Assembly (NCBI GenBank): GCA_022826485.1
Contig: JAJDUU010000033.1
Span: forward strand, 1-45,275
Source: Chloroflexota bacterium
Lineage (GTDB): Bacteria > Chloroflexota > UBA11872
Reading direction: 5' to 3'
Length of the DNA: 45,275 bases
Positions within the stretch are counted from its first letter, which is position 1. Each line of letters opens with the position of its first letter. The notes under the pieces are model-generated. The model was not told where the DNA came from and did not search any database. It was given only the letters and a program-made list of their open reading frames with translations. Of the stretch, positions 4,069 through 14,409 are shown in pieces. The translations under genes were made by a program, and so were the position numbers.

Positions 4069-4132
4069 GTCTCGATGCTCGGTTGCCCTCGCAGTGTACG
4101 CGGCCCGAGGGTGCGGGCTACGTCAGCAGGTC

Positions 4133-6991
4133 TCAGGTAGGCCGCGTGGCCTTGCCGCCGTGGACCGTCGGCTCGTGGCACCACTGGAGCCGCAGCAAGG
4201 CCAGTGGGTCGAGGATGTCTTCCGGCAATCCCAGCAGGTCGACGAGCACGGCTTTGTCGAGCGCTTGGCGCGTTTCGTCGTGGTAGGCCTCGTTGGCCGG
4301 CAAGAATTCGCGTTCGCGGAAGTCCTCGAAGATGGCCTGCGCCCGTTGAAGCTGTGCGTCGCTGAGTTGCCGAGCATCAAGCGTCACCAGAGAAGGCAGC
4401 TGAGTGATCGAAATGATCGCCCGGCCTTGCTGCTGTCGGCCGCCCATCCACCAGAAGGAAATCAAACCCAGCGTGGTGTTGGCCCACAGGGCGACAGCCT
4501 CCTCGCCGTGCTCACCAGTATTGAGGCAGTAGCTCGGCCAGGCTCTGCCACCGATCGAGCGCTCGGGTGTCAAGCAGGCAGACAGGCTCTGCGAGTTGAG
4601 GCGGAAATCGCGGTTGAAGTGAATCCGGGTCGCCGTGCCCCAGACGTCGAGCGCCTGATCGGCACAGTTTTCCCGCACCCGGCCCGCGCTATCCGGCTGG
4701 ACGATTAGGCGCCGCTCGCGCGCCGCATCGTGCCCCCAAAGCATGGGATAGGCCGGGGTCGAGTCACGGATATCCTCCACGTCGAATGGGCCTCGCGGGG
4801 TTCCATCGCTGTTCAGGCCGTTGATGTCACGATCGACTAGCCCCCGCTCGCCCAGGTCAGCCAGCGGCGCTAGGGGCAAGCGAGGCTTCTCCCGTAGGCG
4901 CGCCAGTTGCAATATGCCGTCCCGCAGCGCGAGCGCGGTCTGGGCAACATTCGGCTCTCGCAGCGAGGCGCAGCCGCCGTCGGCTAGCTTTGCGCGGACG
5001 ACGCAGCCCACGTGCTCCCCGCCGAGGAGGAGAAGGTTGCCACGCTGGTCGGGCAGACTGCCGACCGCGCGCGCGATTGCGGCAGCCTCCACCATGCCGC
5101 GCGGTCGGCGATTGAGGTTGAGGTAGAGCACACTCGCATCCGACTCGTCAGCCTCGATCGACTCAGCGCGCTTGACCGCGACGACCAGCGCCTCGGCGAT
5201 GCCCGTGTCCGCCGAGAACGCGCGTTCATGTGCATCACCGGCGGCTGCGATGGTCACCACCGTTAGATTGCAATACTCGCGCGCCAGCAGGCGGCGGGCC
5301 GACGACCATGCATCGCCCGTGATCACCGCGAGCGGCAGCACCAGCGCCAGCACGCCGCCCGGCTTCAGCTTGGCGTGCGCCAGGTCCATGAAGTTTGAGG
5401 CCAATCCGGCGTTGCCATGGCCAGCGGGTTGCTCCAGTTGTGCGCGGATGCGCTGAAGCGCCTCGGACATCTCTCGTTGCTCGTCTTCGCTCGTGGCAAA
5501 CCCGGCGAACGATGGCACCGGCACGTCGTATTCGGCCGCATGGTTCGTCGGACTGGTGAACGGCGGATTCATGATCATGAGGTCCACCGAGTTGTGCGGC
5601 ACCCGTATTTCGTCACCCTGGCGGCCATAGACGATGCCCGTGTCGATGCCGATCTCCTCGCCCGCTCCCCGCACCACGTGCGCCCCAGTTCCGAATAGCG
5701 AGGGCTGTTCGTCATTCACGATGAGGTCGAGCGACCCGATCGCCGCCGCGCGGCCGCTTTCGCCGCTCGGGTATTGATTGCCGTACGGCATGGTGTGGAT
5801 GCGGGTCCGCTCGAAGGTAATGGTCGGATGGGAGCTGGAGAGCGTCGATGCGGTGAGGTGCGTGGCCGCCGGCATGATGTCGGCGCCGATCAGCGCACGT
5901 TCGATCATGGCTTGGTGCAGCGGTTCGTCGTCGCCTCCGGCGCGGCGGTGTCGCGCCGCGACCGCGCGATACGCGGCGGCCAGCAGCGCGCCCGTGCCGC
6001 AGGCAAGGTCGGCGATCCGCAGGTCGCCGTATGCCTCGGGCGACGACCAGTCCACCTCCAGGCGCGCGGCAGCCAGCTCGGCCAGCAGCGCGGCGGACGG
6101 CGGCAGGGTATAGAACGTGGCTAGGAACTTCCGGTCGGTGATGAGCCGCCCAAACATCTGTCCGGAGAGATCGTGGGTGCTGGCCGCTCCGATGCCATGC
6201 AAGTGCACCGCGCCCACGGCCAGACGGTCGAGCACAACCTGCGCCGTCCCGTTGGGAATCGGCGCCAGCACTTCCGCGGCGATCTTGAAGATCGGCCAGT
6301 AGTTGACCTCGTCGAGGATGCGGCGCCAACTCCGGAGCACCTCGGATTTCAACGGCAGGCCGTGCGCGCCGCGAAGCTCGTCGAGCATCGGTAGGCCGTG
6401 CGCCGCCGCGATGGCGATGTGGAAGGTGAGCGCGTTCGTAACGATGGCCATGGCCATGCGCAATGTCTGCTCCCCGCCTTCCTGATGGAGCGCAGTCGCG
6501 ATTCTCTGGAGGGCGGCGGGATAGTCGCGTTGGAGGTCGTCGCGCAGACGGCCCGCAGACTCGCCGACGACGTTCTCGAGAATCAGCATTCCGCGGTCGA
6601 TCAGGCGCTCCGAAACCGCGGTTTGCTCGATCAAGTCCGCCAAGTCGTCGATGCCGCCGCGAAGCCAGCCAGTGCCGGGCCAGCGCACCGGACCATCGGG
6701 GCCCACGGTGTAGACGCAATAGTCGAACACCGTCGCGGCAATGTGCTCGGACAGGCGTGACTGGTCGACGCCGCGGAGCGTGGACGGAGTGCAAACGGCG
6801 ATGACGTGCTCGACGCGATCGCCGGTCTCCGCAATGACCTTGCCCAAGCGGCGCCGGGCGTCTCGCTCAGCGCCTCGCGCCGGCCGGAATTCAGTCTCGA
6901 CGATCACCGTCAGTCCGCCCGGGTGGCGGATCACGACATCAGGGCGCTGCGCGGGCGCGTCGCGGAGCACGCCGGTCTGCTCGGCGGTCAC
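4133..6991 (-). CDS. Large adenine-N6 DNA methyltransferase with PD-(D/E)xK-like N-terminus (orphan restriction/defence-type)
   Basis: At least 952 residues. The class I methyltransferase motif DLACGTGALL is near residue 326, and the catalytic motif IV NPPF of N6-adenine enzymes is near 475. Between them, FYTLPPSAALLAELA is the helical lead-in seen in type I HsdM and type IIG enzymes. The N-terminal stretch PDVVIRHPGGLTVIVETEF has the spacing of a PD-(D/E)xK core (Asp...Glu-x-Glu), suggesting a nuclease or nuclease-derived fold. The C-terminal half is probably target recognition. No specificity or helicase subunit lies nearby, so this may be a single-chain restriction-modification or solitary modification enzyme. 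The only conventional start is the GTG at 6991, yet protein-like sequence (SVVNAALAQVLRGKHPRW) continues upstream to about 7060 before a stop at 7112-7114. The true start may therefore be a non-standard codon such as CTG at 7108. Confidence 0.82.
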   Translation of the reverse strand: MTAEQTGVLRDAPAQRPDVVIRHPGGLTVIVETEFRPARGAERDARRRLGKVIAETGDRVEHVIAVCTPSTLRGVDQSRLSEHIAATVFDYCVYTVGPDGPVRWPGTGWLRGGIDDLADLIEQTAVSERLIDRGMLILENVVGESAGRLRDDLQRDYPAALQRIATALHQEGGEQTLRMAMAIVTNALTFHIAIAAAHGLPMLDELRGAHGLPLKSEVLRSWRRILDEVNYWPIFKIAAEVLAPIPNGTAQVVLDRLAVGAVHLHGIGAASTHDLSGQMFGRLITDRKFLATFYTLPPSAALLAELAAARLEVDWSSPEAYGDLRIADLACGTGALLAAAYRAVAARHRRAGGDDEPLHQAMIERALIGADIMPAATHLTASTLSSSHPTITFERTRIHTMPYGNQYPSGESGRAAAIGSLDLIVNDEQPSLFGTGAHVVRGAGEEIGIDTGIVYGRQGDEIRVPHNSVDLMIMNPPFTSPTNHAAEYDVPVPSFAGFATSEDEQREMSEALQRIRAQLEQPAGHGNAGLASNFMDLAHAKLKPGGVLALVLPLAVITGDAWSSARRLLAREYCNLTVVTIAAAGDAHERAFSADTGIAEALVVAVKRAESIEADESDASVLYLNLNRRPRGMVEAAAIARAVGSLPDQRGNLLLLGGEHVGCVVRAKLADGGCASLREPNVAQTALALRDGILQLARLREKPRLPLAPLADLGERGLVDRDINGLNSDGTPRGPFDVEDIRDSTPAYPMLWGHDAARERRLIVQPDSAGRVRENCADQALDVWGTATRIHFNRDFRLNSQSLSACLTPERSIGGRAWPSYCLNTGEHGEEAVALWANTTLGLISFWWMGGRQQQGRAIISITQLPSLVTLDARQLSDAQLQRAQAIFEDFREREFLPANEAYHDETRQALDKAVLVDLLGLPEDILDPLALLRLQWCHEPTVHGGKATRPT

Positions 6992-7145
6992 TCGGTTGCG
7001 CCAGCGCGGGTGCTTCCCTCGCAGTACCTGAGCAAGCGCTGCGTTGACGACGCTTTCCGCTGTCCGGGATGAGTCGGTTATCTGGAGAGATCCCTCAAAG
7101 GCTGCCAGCCATTAGCCAGCTTGGCAGGCGACCCGGCCATAGTAT

Positions 7146-8231
7146 TCAGTCGGAACCGATAGCACTCGGGAACGCCACGCCGACGGCGGCGCCGGTTTGG
7201 GTGAGGGTGGCGATGATGTCGTCGGTGAGCGGGCAGCCGTTGGCCTCGCGGTCGGCGGCGTTGGCGGCCTCGATGTCGCCGGGGGCGAAGACCTGGTCGA
7301 AGCCGGGGCGGCGGTCGACGGCGCGCATGGCGGCGAGGGTGCCGGCCACGCGCGATTTGAACTCGTCCAGCGGCATCATGCGCGCCACGTCCACGGCCAT
7401 AAAGGCGTGCCCGACGCGTTGGGGGCGGTCCTTGTGCTGCCAATACATGCTGCCGACGTCGACCGTGGACGCGGCGCCGGACAGGATGCCGGCCATGACG
7501 TCGATGAGCAGCGACAGGCCGGCGCCCTTGTATCCGCCCAGGGGCAGCAGCGAGCCGCCGTCGAGGAAGGCCGCCGGGTCGGTGGTGTCGTTGCCGTCGG
7601 CGTCCAGCGCCCAGCCCTCGGGGATCGGTTCGCCGCGGCTCTGCGCCAGGAAGATGTGGCCGGCGGCGACCTGGGTGGTGGCCATGTCGAGCACCAGCTC
7701 GTCGGGCGGGTCGGTGGGCATGGCGATGCAGATGGGGTTGGTGGAAACGAACTTCTCGCTGCCGCCCCAGGGGGCGACGATGGCCTCGCCGTTGGTGAAG
7801 GCCCAGGTCATCAGACCGGCGCGCGCGCCGCGCAACGCCCAATAGCCCTGCGAGCCGTTGTGGTTGGACTCGCGGATGCCGGTCCAGCAGGCGCCGTTGG
7901 CCTTGGCGCGCTCGATGGTGGCGTCGATGGCGAAGTCGCAGACCACGTGGCCCAGACCGTTGTCGCCGTCGACGGCGACGGTGGTGGGCGATTCGGTGAT
8001 GATCCGGGGCCGGGCCTGGGCGTTCACCAGGCCGGCGTTGAGCCGCTCCAGGTAGATGGGGATGCGGGTGATGCCGTGGGTGTCGACGCCGCGCAGGTTC
8101 GAGTCCACCAGCCCGTGGGCCACGACCCGCGCGTCCTTGTCGGCGACGCCCGCGGTGCGGAAGATGGCGGCGGTGAACGCGCGCAGATCGTCCGCGCTGA
8201 ATCGCTGCGCCGGAGGTGAAGCGGTGCCCAT
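7146..8231 (-). CDS. Ldh2/malate-lactate-ureidoglycolate dehydrogenase family oxidoreductase
   Basis: This is a 361-residue member of the NAD(P)-dependent Ldh2 fold, which is unrelated to classical lactate dehydrogenase and oxidises 2-hydroxyacids such as malate, lactate, sulfolactate or ureidoglycolate. Family hallmarks are the N-terminal helical start with RGVDTHGITRIPIYLERL (about residues 47-64), the ESNHNGSQGYWAL block, and STNPICIAMP for cofactor binding. GYKGAGLSLLIDVMAGILSG follows towards the C-terminus. Length is typical (330-360). AAAGGAGT lies just upstream of the ATG and supports the start. It stands alone and diverges from the YqeC-like gene, so the substrate cannot be named. 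Confidence 0.87.
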   Translation of the reverse strand: MGTASPPAQRFSADDLRAFTAAIFRTAGVADKDARVVAHGLVDSNLRGVDTHGITRIPIYLERLNAGLVNAQARPRIITESPTTVAVDGDNGLGHVVCDFAIDATIERAKANGACWTGIRESNHNGSQGYWALRGARAGLMTWAFTNGEAIVAPWGGSEKFVSTNPICIAMPTDPPDELVLDMATTQVAAGHIFLAQSRGEPIPEGWALDADGNDTTDPAAFLDGGSLLPLGGYKGAGLSLLIDVMAGILSGAASTVDVGSMYWQHKDRPQRVGHAFMAVDVARMMPLDEFKSRVAGTLAAMRAVDRRPGFDQVFAPGDIEAANAADREANGCPLTDDIIATLTQTGAAVGVAFPSAIGSD

Positions 8232-8303
8232 GGATCACTCCTTTGCCGAAAGCGGTCGGCGAACCATATCGCCGCTGACCGCCGCCCGGTGGGGTCGCGG
8301 CTG

Positions 8304-9071
8304 ATGCCTCGCCGGGAACTCAGGCCGGTGGACCTGGTGAGCATAGCGACGCCCGGCGACATCGTCGCGATCGTGGGCGCGGGTGGCAAGACCTCGACCA
8401 TGTTTGCGCTCAGCCGGGCGCTGGCCGCGGCGGGGCGGCGCGTGCTGACGACCAAGTCGACCATCATCTACCGACCGACCATGGCGCAGAGCCCCAGCGT
8501 GGTGGAGGTTCCGGCGGAGCGCTGGGCGACCGAGCTGCGCCGGCTGCTGGACGAACGCCGCGAGGTCACGGTGGTGACCGGATCGGCCGGTTCGGACCGC
8601 TGGCAGGGGGTGCCGGCGGACCGGATGACGGAGCTGCGGGAGGCGGCGGGGGCTGACAACGTGATCGTGGAGGCCGACGGCGCGCGGGGTCGGTTGCTGA
8701 AGGCGCCGGCGGACCACGAGCCGGCGATGCCCGCCGGCGCGGTGGTGGTGATGCCGGTCGTGAACCTGCGGGCCGTGGGGGAGCGGATCAGTTCCGAGCA
8801 CGTGCATCGACCGGAGTTGGTGGCGGCGCTGCTGGGCATTCCAGTGGACGGCATGATTGGACTCGAGCACCTGCCGCGGGTGTTGCTGGACGAGTCGGGC
8901 GGCCTGAAGCGAGTGCCGGCGAAGGCCCGCGTGTGGCCGGTGCTGGCGGGCGTGGATGCCGTGGAGCCGTCCCAGGTCGGGGCCTTGCTTCGGCGGCTCG
9001 CGGAGCATCCCCGGGTCAGCGGTCTGCTCACGGCAAATCGGGATGGGCAGTACACGGCGATGACGCTCTGA
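8304..9071 (+). CDS. yqeC: YqeC-like protein (putative selenium-dependent molybdenum hydroxylase accessory)
   Basis: This encodes 255 residues from ATG 8304; an in-frame GTG at 8289 would add five. A P-loop-like GAGGKTS is at about residues 25-31, followed by TTKSTIIYRPT and VIVEADGARGRLLKAP (about 126-141). This is the layout of the YqeC family, predicted to help maturation of selenium-dependent molybdenum hydroxylases. None of the usual partners (a MocA-like nucleotidyltransferase, XdhC or a hydroxylase) lies beside it. It could simply be a P-loop nucleotide-binding protein of that family with another role. It is transcribed away from the Ldh2 gene across a short shared promoter region. Confidence 0.75.
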   Translation: MPRRELRPVDLVSIATPGDIVAIVGAGGKTSTMFALSRALAAAGRRVLTTKSTIIYRPTMAQSPSVVEVPAERWATELRRLLDERREVTVVTGSAGSDRWQGVPADRMTELREAAGADNVIVEADGARGRLLKAPADHEPAMPAGAVVVMPVVNLRAVGERISSEHVHRPELVAALLGIPVDGMIGLEHLPRVLLDESGGLKRVPAKARVWPVLAGVDAVEPSQVGALLRRLAEHPRVSGLLTANRDGQYTAMTL

Positions 9072-9221
9072 CAGCGGGACTTGGAGGGACGGTCGGAGGG
9101 CGGGTCTGGGAGCCGCCCCTACCCGAGCGTACGGGGCGGCAGGTGGGTTAATGGACCTGGCGGGCCTGGATTCCCGCCTCCGGAGACCTTTGTATAAAGG
9201 GGCGATATCCCACGCCCCGGA

Positions 9222-9384
9222 CCCTCACCCTGCCCTCTCCCTGGGGGAGAGGGAACCGGACGACCCTCATCCCACCCTCTCCCTGGGGGAGAGGGAACCG
9301 GAGGACCCTCACCCTGCCCTCTCCCTGGGGGAGAGGGAACCGGAGGACTCTCACCCCACCCTCTCCCTGGGAGGGGGAACCGGA
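9222..9384 (+). repeat. Four tandem copies of a ~42-base palindromic repeat
   Basis: Units lie at 9222-9260, 9261-9302, 9303-9344 and 9345-9384. Each contains CTCTCCCTGGGGGAGAGGG, an inverted repeat able to form a strong hairpin, flanked by ACCCTCAxCC and AACCGGA. The fourth copy is slightly shortened in the loop. Single copies of the same family occur at 17861-17910, 28863-28902, 41168-41205, 41214-41247 and, cut by the IS, at 126 and 45139. No spacer structure typical of CRISPR is present. Confidence 0.85.
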
Positions 9385-9785
9385 TTGCCCCTCATCCCCG
9401 TATCGAGTACGGGGCGAGTTCTACGCCGAGCGTCAGGTGCGGGTCTAGGCTCAACAGGAATGGATTCCCGCCTTCGGAGACCTTTGCATAAGTCTGTAGA
9501 GGCGGGTCCGAGACCCGCCCGACGCCAAGCATCCAAGGCGCTTCCAGGTTCGACCGGACTGGATTCCGGCCTTCGCCGGAATGACGGAGAAGTTACGCAA
9601 AGGTCTCCCTTCGCGGGAATGACGGAGGGAGCGTGGACGCGGGGGATGACCCTCACCCCGGCCGACTCCCTGCGAGCGACCCTTGCGAAATCCAGCCGGG
9701 CTTGGGGGTGACCGGGCGCATCCTCTCCGCCCCCAGGTTCAATGAGGGGTGGATTCCCGCCTTCGGAGACCTTTGAATAAAGAGG

Positions 9786-9872
9786 TAAGGGCGACGCATG
9801 CGTCGCCCCTACGCGTGGGTTCACAGGTTCAGCATCCGGTGGATTCCCGCCTTCGCGGGAATGACGGAGGGG
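9786..9872 (+). repeat. Copy 1 of a ~100-base duplicated repeat block
   Basis: Starting at about 9773 (GAATAAAGAGG), this block runs through the palindrome GGCGACGCATGCGTCGCC, then CCTACGCGTGGG, and into a GGATTCCCGCC...GGAATGACGGA hairpin. It matches 41278-41375 with only a few substitutions, so the two are composite copies of the same ordered set of elements. Confidence 0.8.
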
Positions 9873-9913
9873 TTACGCAAAGGACTGTTCGAGGGAGAGC
9901 GAGTCGGACTCGA

Positions 9914-11135
9914 TCAGCCGCGTACGGCGCGGAGGATGTCGCTCAGGCGCAGGCGGCGGCCGTAGACGAGGAGGCCGATGCGGAAGACTCGGGTGCTGAT
10001 CCAGAGCGCGAACGGGACGCAAGCGGCCAGAATCCCCACGCTGATCGCGAGTGACAGTGTGTCCTGGGATCCCGCCGCCACGCGCAGCAGTCCGGCGACG
10101 GGCGCGGTGATGGGAATCCAACTGAGCGCCACGGCCACCGTGCCGTCGGGATCGCCCTGGATGAACGCGCTCAGCATGAAGGGCACGACGGACGGCAGAA
10201 TCAGGTAGGCGGCGAGCTGCTGGCTCTCCTTGAAACTGGTGGTCAGGGATCCCACGGTGGCGTAGAACGCCGCGAACAGCAGGTAGCCGAGCAGCAGATA
10301 GGCCAGGGCGAGCGGGAGCACCGCGAGGTTGAAGGTCAGGTCGCCGAGATCGTCGAACTGGGCGAGCAGCACCGGCACCAACGCGAGCGCGGGCAGCACC
10401 CACGTCAGCAGCTGCGTGAGACCGGCCAGGGCCTGACCGGCCACCTTGCCGAGCAATAGCTGATCGGGCGTGACCGACGACAGCACGAGCTCGATGACGC
10501 GGGTTTCCTTCTCCTCGCTCACGCCCTCCAGCAGATACCCGGCGCTGGTGAAGACGACGACCATGAACAGCACGGCCGCCACGTAGGGCACGACCGAATC
10601 GAAGATCATGCCAGCGCCGAATCCGGGCGGCGGCGAGCCGTCCTCGCTTTCGGCGCGCAGGGCCACGGGCTGCTGGATGCGGGGGGCGATCTCGGGCGCC
10701 ACGTGCGCTTCAAGCAGCGCGTCGAGAAGGACGGAGCGTATGGCGCCGCGGGCGTCGCCCTCGCGTTCGCCGAAGGTGCCGAACTCGTCCGCCACGAACC
10801 GCACGTCGCCCGACGCCATGTAGCCGGCGTCCACGACGAAATAGCCGTCAATGTCTCCCCGCGAAAGCGCCGCGCGCATCGTCGCCTCGTCGGCGAACCG
10901 CGAGAAATCCGGCGGCAAATCCCGCCCGGCCAGCACGCCGGCGTGGTCGATCAGGCCGTAGCGGTCGTCCGAATCGGACGTGGACGCCTCGGCCACGGCG
11001 CCGCCGATGCGGTCGCCAAAGACGACGAACACCAGCACCGTGATCACCAGGAGCACGGGCAGGGCGGCCGTGCTGATGAGAAAGCTCTTGCGGCCGATCG
11101 TGCGCCGCAGCTCCCAGGCCGCCACCACGGCCGCG

Positions 11136-12038: not shown

Positions 12039-12145
12039 GGCGCATGTTTAGCACGCCCGCTCGAACCTCCGGCGGGCCGCGGGCTGCCCAAGCTCCGCCG
12101 AATCAGTCAAAATGCGCTGTTTGGTCACGCGGAGACCCAAGGCCC

Positions 12146-13249
12146 ATGCCCGAGCTCGTCCCCATCGATCACGACCGCCTGCTGGAAACGTTCCTGCGCC
12201 TGCTGCGCATCGACAGCTATCACGGCCACGAGGATCGGATCGTGGAAGTCCTGGAGCCGATGCTTCACGCGGCGGGACTGACGACGACGGTCGACGCCCA
12301 CGGCAATCTCATCGCCACCTGGGAGGCCCGGGACAGCGACGCCGAGCCGCTGATGCTCAACGCGCACATGGACACCGTGTGGCCCACGCCCGGCATGGAA
12401 CCCGTGGTGACGGACGAGGGGGTCGCGACGGACGGCTCCAGCGTGCTCGGCGCGGACGACAAGGCCGGCGTGGCGGCCATCGTGGAAGGCGTGCAGGCGG
12501 TGGCCGACGCGGGCTTGCCGCATGGGCCGATCGAGCTGGTCTTTACGGTGGGCGAGGACGTGGGCCACATCGGGTCGCGCGCCTTCGACCCCGAATCCAT
12601 CCAGTCTCGGCGGGGGCTGGTGTTCGATGGCGACGGGCCGGTCGGCTCGGTGGTGTTGGAGGGGCCCGCGGCAGCCGGGTTCACGGCCGTATTTCGCGGT
12701 AAGGCGGCCCACGCCGGCATCGAACCCGAGAACGGCGTCAGCGCCATCGCCATGGCGGCGCGGGCCATCGACCGGATGAAGCTGGGACGTATCACCAACT
12801 ACACCGTCGCCAACATCGGCACCATCAACGGCGGCCAGGCGATGAACATCGTGCCGGCGGAGGTGACGCTGGTGGGACAGGCCCGAAGCCTGCGTCAGGG
12901 GCTCCTCGAGAAGCAGATCGAGCACATGCGCGAGGTCATGGAGGAAGCGGCCAACGAGCTTGGCGGCACGGTCGACTATGAGGAGACCATTCGCATTGCG
13001 GCGTTCGGCTTCAACAAGCAGAACCAGGTCGTCAGGTTGGCGGACCGCGCGATCCGAGCGGCCGGGCTCGAACCGTCACACGTTCGGACGGGCGGCGGCA
13101 GCGACGCGCACGAGTTCAACGCCAAGGGCATCTGGTCGGTGATCCTGGGCATGGGCTGCACAGGGGCGCACACCCTGGACGAGTTCGCGCCGCACGAGGC
13201 CTTGCGACAGGCCGCGCAGGTCGCGGCGCAGGCCATCGTCGTTGCATAG
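12146..13249 (+). CDS. M20 family metallopeptidase, PepT-like (copy 1)
   Basis: This encodes 367 residues from ATG 12146. The zinc ligands of M20 tripeptidase-like enzymes are visible: NAHMDTV with His about 74 and Asp about 76, GADDKAG with Asp about 104, GEDVGHIG with the general-base Glu about 137, and GGGSDAHEF with His about 322. The dimerisation (lid) domain is residues about 170-280. Such enzymes cleave short peptides or related amides in the cytoplasm. The following gene is a close paralogue in the same direction, so the pair arose by tandem duplication. The longer open frame starting at 12044 has no coding support before the ATG. Confidence 0.86.
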   Translation: MPELVPIDHDRLLETFLRLLRIDSYHGHEDRIVEVLEPMLHAAGLTTTVDAHGNLIATWEARDSDAEPLMLNAHMDTVWPTPGMEPVVTDEGVATDGSSVLGADDKAGVAAIVEGVQAVADAGLPHGPIELVFTVGEDVGHIGSRAFDPESIQSRRGLVFDGDGPVGSVVLEGPAAAGFTAVFRGKAAHAGIEPENGVSAIAMAARAIDRMKLGRITNYTVANIGTINGGQAMNIVPAEVTLVGQARSLRQGLLEKQIEHMREVMEEAANELGGTVDYEETIRIAAFGFNKQNQVVRLADRAIRAAGLEPSHVRTGGGSDAHEFNAKGIWSVILGMGCTGAHTLDEFAPHEALRQAAQVAAQAIVVA

Positions 13250-13296: not shown

Positions 13297-14409
13297 ATGC
13301 CTGAAAGCCCCGGCCCGGTGGCGATCAATTGGGACCGCCTCCTCGCAAACTTCGTCGACATGCTGGCGGTCGATAGCTACTACGGCGACGAGGAGCGCGT
13401 CGCGGCGATCATTCGGCCGGCGCTGGAACCGCTGGGCATCCGGTTTCGCAACGACCCGGCGGGCAATCTGATCGGGCGCTGGCCGGGCCGCGGGCGCGGC
13501 GACGGACTGATCATGCTCAACGCGCACATGGACACCGTGCGGCCGACGCCGACCATGCGGCCCGTGGTGGACGCCGACGGGGTGCGGTCCGACGGGTCGA
13601 GCGTGCTGGGGGCGGATGACAAGGCCGGGCTGGCCGCGATCATTGAGGCGATTCGCGCGGTTGACGAGGCCGGTCTGGATCACGCGCCGATCGAGCTCGT
13701 GTTCACCGTGGGCGAGGACGTGGGGCACATCGGGTCGAAGGCGTTCGACGCGGCGTCCATCGACGCTCGAACGTCGTTCGTGTTCGACGCCGGCGGGCCG
13801 GTGGGCACCGTGGTGATGCGCGCGCCGGGCCAGATTCGGTGCACGGCCACGCTGCACGGGCGGGCGGCCCACGCGGGGATCGAGCCCGAGCTGGGAGTCA
13901 GCGCCATCAGTCTGCTGGCGCGGGCGGTGGACCGGATGCCGCTGGGGCGGATCGACGACGGAACGACCGCCAACATCGGGCGCATCGAGGGCGGGCAGGC
14001 ATCGAACATCGTGGCCCCCACGGCGCGCATCGAGGCCGAGGCGCGCAGTCTCGACGAGGACACGCTCGCGGCGCAGATTGACGCCATGCGCGCGGCCGTC
14101 GCCGACGCCGCGGCCGACCTGGGCGGCGCGTTCGATTTCGAGGAACACCGGTTCTACGTGGCCTATGAACTGCCGGAGGGCGCGCCCGCCGTGCAGCTTG
14201 CCGACCGCGCGATCGCCGCGTCCGGCCTGACGCCGCGGCATGTCAGCACGGGCGGCGGCAGTGACGCCCACGAGTTCAACCTCAAGGGCATCACCTCGGT
14301 GTGCCTGGGGGTGGGCTATATCGACGTGCACACCACCGAGGAGTTCATGCCGCACGACGCTCTGCGGGACATCACGCAGGTGGCGGCGCAGCTGATCACG
14401 CAGGCCTGA
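13297..14409 (+). CDS. M20 family metallopeptidase, PepT-like (copy 2)
   Basis: This is a 370-residue paralogue of the preceding gene. It keeps NAHMDTV (His about 77), SSVLGADDKAGLAAI, FTVGEDVGHIGSKAF and STGGGSDAHEFNLKG. The two proteins align along their whole length without large gaps. Divergence is greatest near the N-terminus and in the C-terminal part of the lid domain, which hints at different peptide preferences. It starts 47 bases after the first gene and is probably co-transcribed. Confidence in the family is high; the substrate is unknown. Confidence 0.86.
   Translation: MPESPGPVAINWDRLLANFVDMLAVDSYYGDEERVAAIIRPALEPLGIRFRNDPAGNLIGRWPGRGRGDGLIMLNAHMDTVRPTPTMRPVVDADGVRSDGSSVLGADDKAGLAAIIEAIRAVDEAGLDHAPIELVFTVGEDVGHIGSKAFDAASIDARTSFVFDAGGPVGTVVMRAPGQIRCTATLHGRAAHAGIEPELGVSAISLLARAVDRMPLGRIDDGTTANIGRIEGGQASNIVAPTARIEAEARSLDEDTLAAQIDAMRAAVADAAADLGGAFDFEEHRFYVAYELPEGAPAVQLADRAIAASGLTPRHVSTGGGSDAHEFNLKGITSVCLGVGYIDVHTTEEFMPHDALRDITQVAAQLITQA

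What the first reader, a model, noticed from the sequence alone, without database searches (positions are those of the whole stretch)
4133..7111. Orphan methyltransferase with nuclease-like N-terminus and no conventional start for its conserved N-terminal part
The frame upstream of GTG 6991 continues as convincing protein (NAALAQVLRGKHPRWRNRV) for at least 20 residues, yet no ATG, GTG or TTG occurs before the in-frame TAA at 7112-7114. Either a CTG or other rare start is used, or an indel separated the original start. The PD-(D/E)xK-like pattern ahead of an N6-adenine methylase suggests a single-chain restriction or phage-defence protein without partner genes.
Basis: partly seen in the sequence, partly recalled or inferred. 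Interest (0 to 1): 0.5.

Follow-up and report, generated by a model that had tools for sequence, protein, structure and literature searches.

The report
Single-chain restriction-modification enzyme, AUA start
This bacterial gene most likely makes one protein that both marks and cuts DNA, belongs to an unnamed family with an unusual cutting site, and seems to start at a rare codon that would keep its level low.

Summary
In detail: the frame is open for 992 codons (4136-7111, minus strand) with no ATG/GTG/TTG before GTG 6991. Homologues put the N-terminus about 30 codons upstream of that GTG: 55 of 57 relatives with a complete N-terminus have a conventional start codon 38-47 codons before the conserved PD; only the window and its 92% relative lack one. 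Both share just two near-cognate codons there, CTG and ATA. ATA (7079-7081) has the better Shine-Dalgarno match and the family's start position, so a conserved AUA start is the best reading. The protein models as a Type IIG-like chain: PD-(D/E)xK-fold nuclease, helical connector, gamma-class N6-adenine methylase, recognition-like domain; first Foldseek match BpuSI. The nuclease motif is PD..ExE; 47 of 58 relatives have ExE, 11 ExK, one change on the tree. BamHI naturally has E there, but lysine loss kills BbvCI, so cleavage is unproven. The gene is a single-gene insertion between LDH and GMD genes, absent in four of four congeners examined. No partner gene recurs consistently. Relatives occur in five phyla. 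A new variant of a known kind; biochemistry is untested.

The parts
4133..7081 (-). Gene of the Type IIG-like protein, 982 codons from the proposed ATA start plus stop
   Evidence: Open frame; full-length homologues
7079..7081 (-). Proposed AUA start codon
   Evidence: Shared with L003; lies 46 codons before PD, while 55 of 57 relatives have a conventional start at 38-47
7091..7096 (-). GAGGGA, Shine-Dalgarno-like, 9 nt before ATA
   Evidence: Duplex energy before ATA -6.1 (window) and -7.2 kcal/mol (L003) with a generic anti-SD; place
7106..7108 (-). Rival CTG start codon, also shared with L003
   Evidence: Duplex energy -3.1 (window) and -5.5 (L003); 55 codons before PD, outside 38-47
6989..6991 (-). 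GTG, first conventional start codon, unlikely to be the family N-terminus
   Evidence: GTC in L003; duplex energy -1.5; lies inside the conserved N-terminal part
7078..7140 (-). Short upstream ORF, ATG to TAA, whose stop overlaps the ATA by two bases
   Evidence: Open in L003 too, but all 5 changed codons change the residue; place
6647..7081 (-). PD-(D/E)xK-fold nuclease domain, residues 1-145; E9, P47-D48, E62-x-E64
   Evidence: Domain model pLDDT 92.1; fold comparison; D48, E62, E64 invariant in 19 of 19 rows
6182..6646 (-). Helical connector, residues 146-300 (boundaries approximate)
   Evidence: Secondary structure of the model
5162..6181 (-). Gamma-class N6-adenine methyltransferase domain, residues 301-640 (boundaries approximate); DLACGTGALL 358-367, NPPF 505-508
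   Evidence: Alignment and structure matches
4136..5161 (-). Recognition-like C-terminal part, residues 641-982 (boundaries approximate)
   Evidence: Aligned with the C-terminal parts of CamA, M.BseCI, BrxX; contains the most divergent stretch in several pairs of close relatives
4107..7166 (-). Inserted segment between the LDH and GMD genes, absent from four congeneric genomes
   Evidence: Empty sites in L059, L060, L061, L063; limits read by eye and located

Best explanation
The gene encodes a single-chain, Type IIG-like restriction-modification enzyme. The C-terminal domain reads a DNA sequence, the middle domain methylates an adenine there with AdoMet, and the N-terminal PD-(D/E)xK-fold domain, with an ExE active site as in BamHI, cuts unmodified DNA. 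Translation starts at AUA 7081-7079 behind GAGGGA, which would keep the level of a risky enzyme low. Shown by computation: no conventional start in two genomes, the family's N-terminal position, the predicted domain order and fold, the ExE clade, the single-gene insertion, purifying selection and uneven divergence along the gene. Inferred: use of AUA, cleavage, methylation, and defence against phages or plasmids.
For: Start: 55 of 57 complete relatives have a conventional start 38-47 codons before PD; ATA is at 46. Window and L003 share only CTG and ATA as near-cognate codons ahead of the conserved N-terminal residues. SD energy at ATA -6.1/-7.2 against -3.1/-5.5 at CTG. dN/dS 0.16 from ATA on and 0.26 over codons 10-47, where synonymous change is in excess (8 of about 29 against 7 of about 82 sites, Fisher P 0.022). 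AUA starts are reported in S. aureus infC, ccpN and citZ; non-canonical starts gave about 10% of AUG reporter expression in poor medium, up to 30% for ccpN AUA in rich medium (PMC13009471, passages). Architecture: model pTM 0.86; first Foldseek hit BpuSI, E 8.3e-19 over 1084 columns; DrdV Z 21.1, rmsd 8.0-8.1, about 600 aligned, model 3-943 or 1-925. Nuclease: domain model pLDDT 92.1; best Z 7.5 (rmsd 3.8, 115 aligned), rows including Hjc, SSO0001, McrBC, DrdV, BsaXI, PaqCI. D48, E62, E64 invariant in 19 of 19; ExE in 47 and ExK in 11 of 58, one change on the tree; nuclease-domain dN/dS 0.12-0.29 in the 8 pairs compared. No consistently recurring partner.
Against: No activity is shown. Foldseek alone gives the nuclease domain no match at E 0.001 or better, and no VIA Z reaches 8. 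The BpuSI match is not one rigid superposition: Foldseek TM 0.35/0.39, rmsd 15.4, and its VIA alignment (Z 21.0, rmsd 10.2) starts at model residue 148, so it does not test the nuclease domain. No PDB sequence match for the single protein; only E 0.03 for the profile, to BrxX. In BbvCI lysine mutation abolishes cleavage and R1(K169E) serves as an inactive subunit (PMC6326814, passages). The SD is moderate, the anti-SD used was generic and not read from this genome, and for one S. aureus non-canonical start (cvfC1 AUU) the paper stresses a very strong SD. The start evidence rests on two related genomes. dN/dS is higher in codons 10-47 (0.26) than in the rest (0.07-0.20 by segment).
Confidence: 0.6

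Rival explanations
1. An orphan or regulatory methyltransferase (CamA-like) whose nuclease-fold domain no longer cuts; the ExE site marks loss of cleavage and the domain only helps to bind DNA.
For: Best VIA matches of methylase plus C-terminal part are CamA, Z 23.4, rmsd 5.0, 451 aligned. Lysine mutation kills BbvCI cleavage (PMC6326814, passages).
Against: E64 is as invariant as D48 and E62 in 19 of 19 rows, and 47 of 58 relatives have ExE; a dead site should drift. The nuclease domain is under purifying selection in the 8 pairs compared. BamHI naturally has E at this place (PMC4081073, passage).
Confidence: 0.27
2. Translation starts at CTG 7108, or initiation depends on coupling to the short upstream ORF whose TAA overlaps the ATA.
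For: CTG is shared by window and L003; the uORF is open and its stop overlaps ATA in both. In L003 the SD energy before CTG is -5.5, not far from the -7.2 before ATA.
Against: CTG has the weaker SD energy in both and lies 9 codons before ATA, outside the 38-47 range of the relatives. All 5 changed uORF codons are non-synonymous. Coupling would still use ATA as the start, so it modifies rather than replaces the main reading.
Confidence: 0.18
3. The gene lost its start and is a young pseudogene or makes only a truncated protein from a downstream GTG.
For: No conventional start for the full-length protein. Broken or partial relatives exist in other genomes, for example G015, G021 and G012:C11. 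Both genomes share a GTG at frame codon 47, downstream of the first conserved helix.
Against: Both genomes keep 992 open codons, dN/dS is 0.16 over the gene, and the N-terminal residues conserved in the family are kept in both. GTG 6991 is absent in L003.
Confidence: 0.08
4. A component of a multi-gene system such as BREX (PglX) or MADS (mad2).
For: PADLOC mad2 E 2.6e-14 over residues of the methylase part, weak PglX; BrxX among structure matches. An ABC-type ATPase at 11139-12038 hits PADLOC mad3 (6.6e-27) and mad8 (1.1e-11).
Against: That ATPase lies next to a predicted permease and also hits twelve other ATPase-type defence models, so I read it as an ordinary ABC transporter. The other 7 neighbours tested have no hit at E 0.001. 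No ORF near the gene recurs in more than two other unrelated loci of the 18 compared. NCBIfam MADS2 scores 17 bits against a cut-off of 720.
Confidence: 0.04

Closest known systems
Type IIG enzyme BpuSI (PDB 3s1s)
   Same: First Foldseek match over 1084 columns; described as N-terminal endonuclease, gamma-class methylase and C-terminal specificity domain (PMC4081073, passage), the order predicted here
   Different: 13% identity; domains not superposable as one body (TM 0.35/0.39); the VIA alignment starts at model residue 148; BpuSI is accompanied by two MTases, none recurs here; here ExE site
DrdV (PDB 7lo5, 7lvv); Type IIG/IIL by recall
   Same: VIA alignment spans model residues 3-943 or 1-925, Z 21.1, rmsd 8.0-8.1; it also matches the nuclease domain alone, Z 6.1-6.3, rmsd 4.0-4.1, 110 aligned
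   Different: About 12% identity; recognition sequence here unknown
CamA, adenine methyltransferase (PDB 8cy0 and others); orphan by recall
   Same: Methylase plus C-terminal part align, Z 23.4, rmsd 5.0, 451 residues
   Different: The alignment begins at model residue 320; nothing is aligned to the nuclease domain
BrxX/PglX of BREX
   Same: Residues 159-979 align, Z 21.4, rmsd 5.2, 636 residues
   Different: No BREX partners among the neighbours tested; the alignment does not include the nuclease domain
BamHI active site
   Same: E in place of the catalytic K (PMC4081073, passage)
   Different: No combined methylase (recall); the resemblance is of the motif only, homology was not tested

Membership tests
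Type IIG (combined R-M-S chain) | Endonuclease domain in the same chain | tested here: met
   As a fold, not as an activity: domain model and fold comparison, best Z 7.5, nuclease regions of DrdV and BsaXI among the rows; Foldseek alone was weak
Type IIG (combined R-M-S chain) | Gamma-class N6-adenine methylase, motif I before NPPF | tested here: met
   DLACGTGALL 358-367, NPPF 505-508; structure matches
Type IIG (combined R-M-S chain) | Specificity module in the chain or as a partner | tested here: met
   As a fold: residues beyond 641 align with C-terminal parts of CamA, BrxX, M.BseCI; variable region at 601-840 in several pairs. Sequence recognition itself untested
Type IIG (combined R-M-S chain) | Cleaves DNA, stimulated by or requiring AdoMet | not testable with these tools
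   Needs purified protein
PD-(D/E)xK nuclease superfamily | PD..(D/E)xK catalytic residues | tested here: inconclusive
   PD..ExE here; ExK in 11 of 58 relatives; K replaced by E in BamHI (PMC4081073)
PD-(D/E)xK nuclease superfamily | Core fold | tested here: met
   Z up to 7.5, supported by the agreement of many rows rather than by one strong match; Foldseek best E 0.033
BREX PglX | Co-located BREX genes | tested here: not met
   Eight neighbours tested; no recurring BREX-like neighbour in 18 loci
MADS mad2 | Curated NCBIfam score and partner mad genes | tested here: not met
   17 of 720 bits; neighbours, apart from one ABC ATPase with mad3 and mad8 hits
Orphan methyltransferase (CamA-like) | No nuclease | tested here: inconclusive
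   A nuclease-fold domain is present, but its activity is unknown

The most novel reading that the evidence does not exclude
An undescribed family of single-chain restriction-modification enzymes in which the third catalytic residue switched once between lysine and glutamate and the ExE site was then kept throughout a large clade in at least five phyla, many members probably from sponge symbionts. The enzymes move as single genes and change specificity by recombination behind a conserved nuclease end, and in one lineage translation is throttled by a conserved AUA start.
Probability: 0.4. Interest if true: 0.62.

Novelty: new variant of a known kind. Interest (0 to 1): 0.46.

Why it matters
If true, gene callers that accept only ATG/GTG/TTG would cut off the first catalytic helix of this enzyme. 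The single K/E switch, with relatives on both sides, would let one test directly how PD-(D/E)xK nucleases work without the catalytic lysine. The family may account for part of the enrichment of restriction-modification genes in sponge symbionts reported in PMC8163846 and PMC5099237 (passages), and the mosaic genes may be a natural set for studying change of specificity.

Tried and rejected
GTG 6991 as start: absent in L003 and inside the conserved N-terminus. Fusion with the upstream LDH gene: an in-frame TAA at 7112-7114 stands between. Indel that removed the start: not needed, the frame is continuous to the family's start position. uORF as a conserved peptide: all 5 changed codons are non-synonymous. 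Phage origin: no relative in phages at E 1e-5 nor in viral contigs by the pattern method (36 stretches matched a pattern, none confirmed). Sigma-70-like promoter: none found in 7050-8300. Pfam: no match reaching its cut-off for the protein; for the 19 nuclease domains the best E was 0.023.

A recurring neighbour: tyrosine-recombinase genes (Pfam Phage_integrase) lie 83 nt, 4.1 kb and 1.3 kb downstream in L018, L017 and L009, on the other strand. They are 34-38% alike and absent from the other loci as far as the held DNA reaches; they look like Xer-type recombinases (recall), so I do not take them as partners, but a link to insertion is not excluded. One search was cut in its output, so one search repeated the comparison with a looser limit.

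Rows dropped: three of 61 ORFs without a recognisable motif (L090, L037, L019 at 3572) before the ExE/ExK count; L009 (contig edge) from the start count; ORFs under 700 aa were not counted. The partner comparison used 15 of the 18 loci (short L007, L011, L012 left out) plus three plasmid loci, and contig ends limit the flanks. The tree left out the nuclease domain and used a quick search. I found no description of this family in the listings of the paper searches aimed at it, which are not exhaustive. Paper searches for BamHI residues led nowhere useful.

Full report
Observation. The minus-strand frame from TAA 7112-7114 to the stop 4133-4135 holds 992 sense codons, and its first ATG/GTG/TTG is GTG 6991.

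Relatives. The search for related loci gave 18 loci. In the window's family 16 of 19 genomes hold a match, up to 5 per genome; in its order 18 of 24; in a phylum sample 34 of 301 genomes and 12 of 179 genera. These tallies count every match at E <= 0.001, fragments and weak methylase-only hits included. Relatives covering 96-98% of the protein lie on plasmids of Nitrosospira, Aminobacter and Sulfuricystis, and a 23% fragment on three Dinoroseobacter plasmids. None was found in phages or, by the pattern method, in viral contigs.

The start. Of 61 distinct ORFs of 700 aa or more, 58 have a recognisable PD..Ex(E/K) motif and 57 of these a complete N-terminus; 55 of 57 have ATG, GTG or TTG 38-47 codons before PD. 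The two without are the window and L003, which share the surrounding genes. Between them the only shared near-cognate codons ahead of the conserved N-terminal residues are CTG (frame codon 1, counted from 0) and ATA (codon 10); GTG 6991 is GTC in L003, and the next shared conventional start is GTG at codon 47. Duplex energy with a generic anti-SD is -6.1 and -7.2 kcal/mol before ATA, -3.1 and -5.5 before CTG, and -1.5 before GTG 6991. ATA lies 46 codons before PD, within the range of the relatives; CTG, at 55, does not. dN/dS is 0.16 from ATA on and 0.26 for codons 10-47, where synonymous change exceeds replacement (8 of about 29 against 7 of about 82 sites, P 0.022). E9, N13, H24, P25, W27 and E34, nearly invariant in the 19-row alignment, are kept in both. 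I conclude that the N-terminus is still translated, most likely from AUA. AUA starts are reported in Staphylococcus aureus, where non-canonical starts gave about 10% of AUG reporter expression in poor medium and up to 30% for one in rich medium (PMC13009471, passages). That a weak start limits a dangerous enzyme here is my inference.

Upstream ORF. An ATG at 7140 opens 20 codons whose TAA (7080-7078) overlaps ATA by two bases. It is open in L003 too, but all five changed codons are non-synonymous, so it is not conserved as a peptide. Termination-coupled initiation at AUA remains possible.

Architecture. AlphaFold2 on 19 sequences gave pLDDT 83.4 and pTM 0.86. Foldseek's first match is Type IIG BpuSI (E 8.3e-19, TM 0.35/0.39, rmsd 15.4), then BrxX, DrdV and CamA. 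VIA-align gives CamA Z 23.4 (rmsd 5.0, 451 aligned, model 320-956), BrxX Z 21.4 (rmsd 5.2, 636 aligned, 159-979), DrdV Z 21.1 (rmsd 8.0-8.1, about 600 aligned, 3-943 or 1-925) and BpuSI Z 21.0 (rmsd 10.2, 619 aligned, 148-980). Motif I is DLACGTGALL (358-367) and motif IV NPPF (505-508).

Nuclease domain. Residues 1-150 alone gave pLDDT 92.1. Foldseek found nothing at E 0.001 or better (best 0.033). VIA gave Z up to 7.5 (rmsd 3.8, 115 aligned); the 50 rows shown include Holliday-junction resolvases, SSO0001, McrBC, DrdV, BsaXI, Can2, SPARDA, PaqCI and R2 proteins, which by my recall are nearly all PD-(D/E)xK folds. Each Z is modest; the agreement is the evidence. The motif is PD48..E62-x-E64; D48, E62 and E64 are invariant in 19 of 19 rows, E9 nearly so. 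Of 58 relatives 47 are ExE and 11 ExK, and a tree built without the nuclease domain needs one change, SH-aLRT 100. The root is at the midpoint, so the direction K to E is an inference. A review states that K is replaced by E in BamHI, by Q in BglII and NotI and by N in MspI (PMC4081073, passage). Against this, lysine mutation abolishes BbvCI cleavage and R1(K169E) is used as an inactive subunit (PMC6326814, passages).

Selection and mosaicism. Among L004, L005 and L016, whose upstream flanks match, dS in the nuclease domain is 0.24-0.27 but 1.05-1.43 in residues 301-600 and 1.29-1.84 in 601-840; protein identity is 85-97% in residues 1-180 and 48-67% in 601-780. This fits replacement of the methylase and recognition parts by recombination behind a conserved 5' end. 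The pattern is not uniform: window and L003 have dS 0.14 in 301-600 and 0.66 at 841-982, while L007 and L008 are least diverged in 601-840 (dS 0.12) and L010 and L013 show no such jump. I ran no formal recombination test.

Context. LDH and GMD genes are neighbours in G002, G003, G004 and G005 (four of four examined) with the gene absent between them; in the window and G001 it stands there, in the window as about 3.06 kb (about 4107-7166) with no other evident gene. In 18 loci compared, no nearby ORF recurs in more than two other unrelated loci; the widest case is a tyrosine-recombinase gene near the gene in L009, L017 and L018. PADLOC finds hits in one of eight neighbours, an ABC-type ATPase. 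Third-position GC is 0.81 against 0.81-0.95 in four neighbours, which neither proves nor excludes recent transfer.

Distribution caveat. The 18 named loci span five NCBI phyla. Only some titles point to sponges by name (Candidatus Synechococcus spongiarum, Palauibacter rhopaloidicola); that most others are sponge bins is recalled. L012, labelled Gammaproteobacteria, is a 6.2-kb contig whose flank is 96.7% identical to the Palauibacter locus L010, so it may be mis-binned and should not count as cross-phylum transfer.

Verdict. A real, probably functional, single-chain Type IIG-like protein of an unnamed family with an ExE nuclease variant and a probable AUA start. The family and domain-order claims are well supported; cleavage, methylation and defence are inferred.

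Noticed in passing
window 9060-9915: An 856-bp repeat-rich segment absent from the otherwise collinear L003; the search of the own genome listed 100 matching places, nearly all partial, so pieces of it are scattered widely.
   Followed up: partly
L012 and L010: The Gammaproteobacteria-labelled contig L012 matches the Palauibacter locus L010 at 96.7% over 1.4 kb of flank; probable mis-binning, or a strain variant.
   Followed up: partly
L007 and L011: Two contigs of one Synechococcus spongiarum genome carry near-identical loci (94% over 4.98 kb) that differ most in residues 601-840: paralogues or strain mixture.
   Followed up: partly
L018:11017-12054, L017:15005-15928, L009:4127-5158: Tyrosine-recombinase genes 83 nt, 4.1 kb and 1.3 kb downstream of the gene in three loci, opposite strand.
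   Followed up: partly
G015:C101:8181-8853, G012:C11:35474-35671, G021:C24:9555-9779: Broken or partial relatives of the family; stop codons lie in a matched stretch of each, so loss also happens.
   Followed up: no
window 12044-13249 and 13297-14409: Two adjacent, similar-looking peptidase-like genes (by eye), perhaps a tandem duplication.
   Followed up: no
G000:C28:190422-193364 (L002, L025): A second, 35% identical full-length relative with ExE in the same genome.
   Followed up: partly
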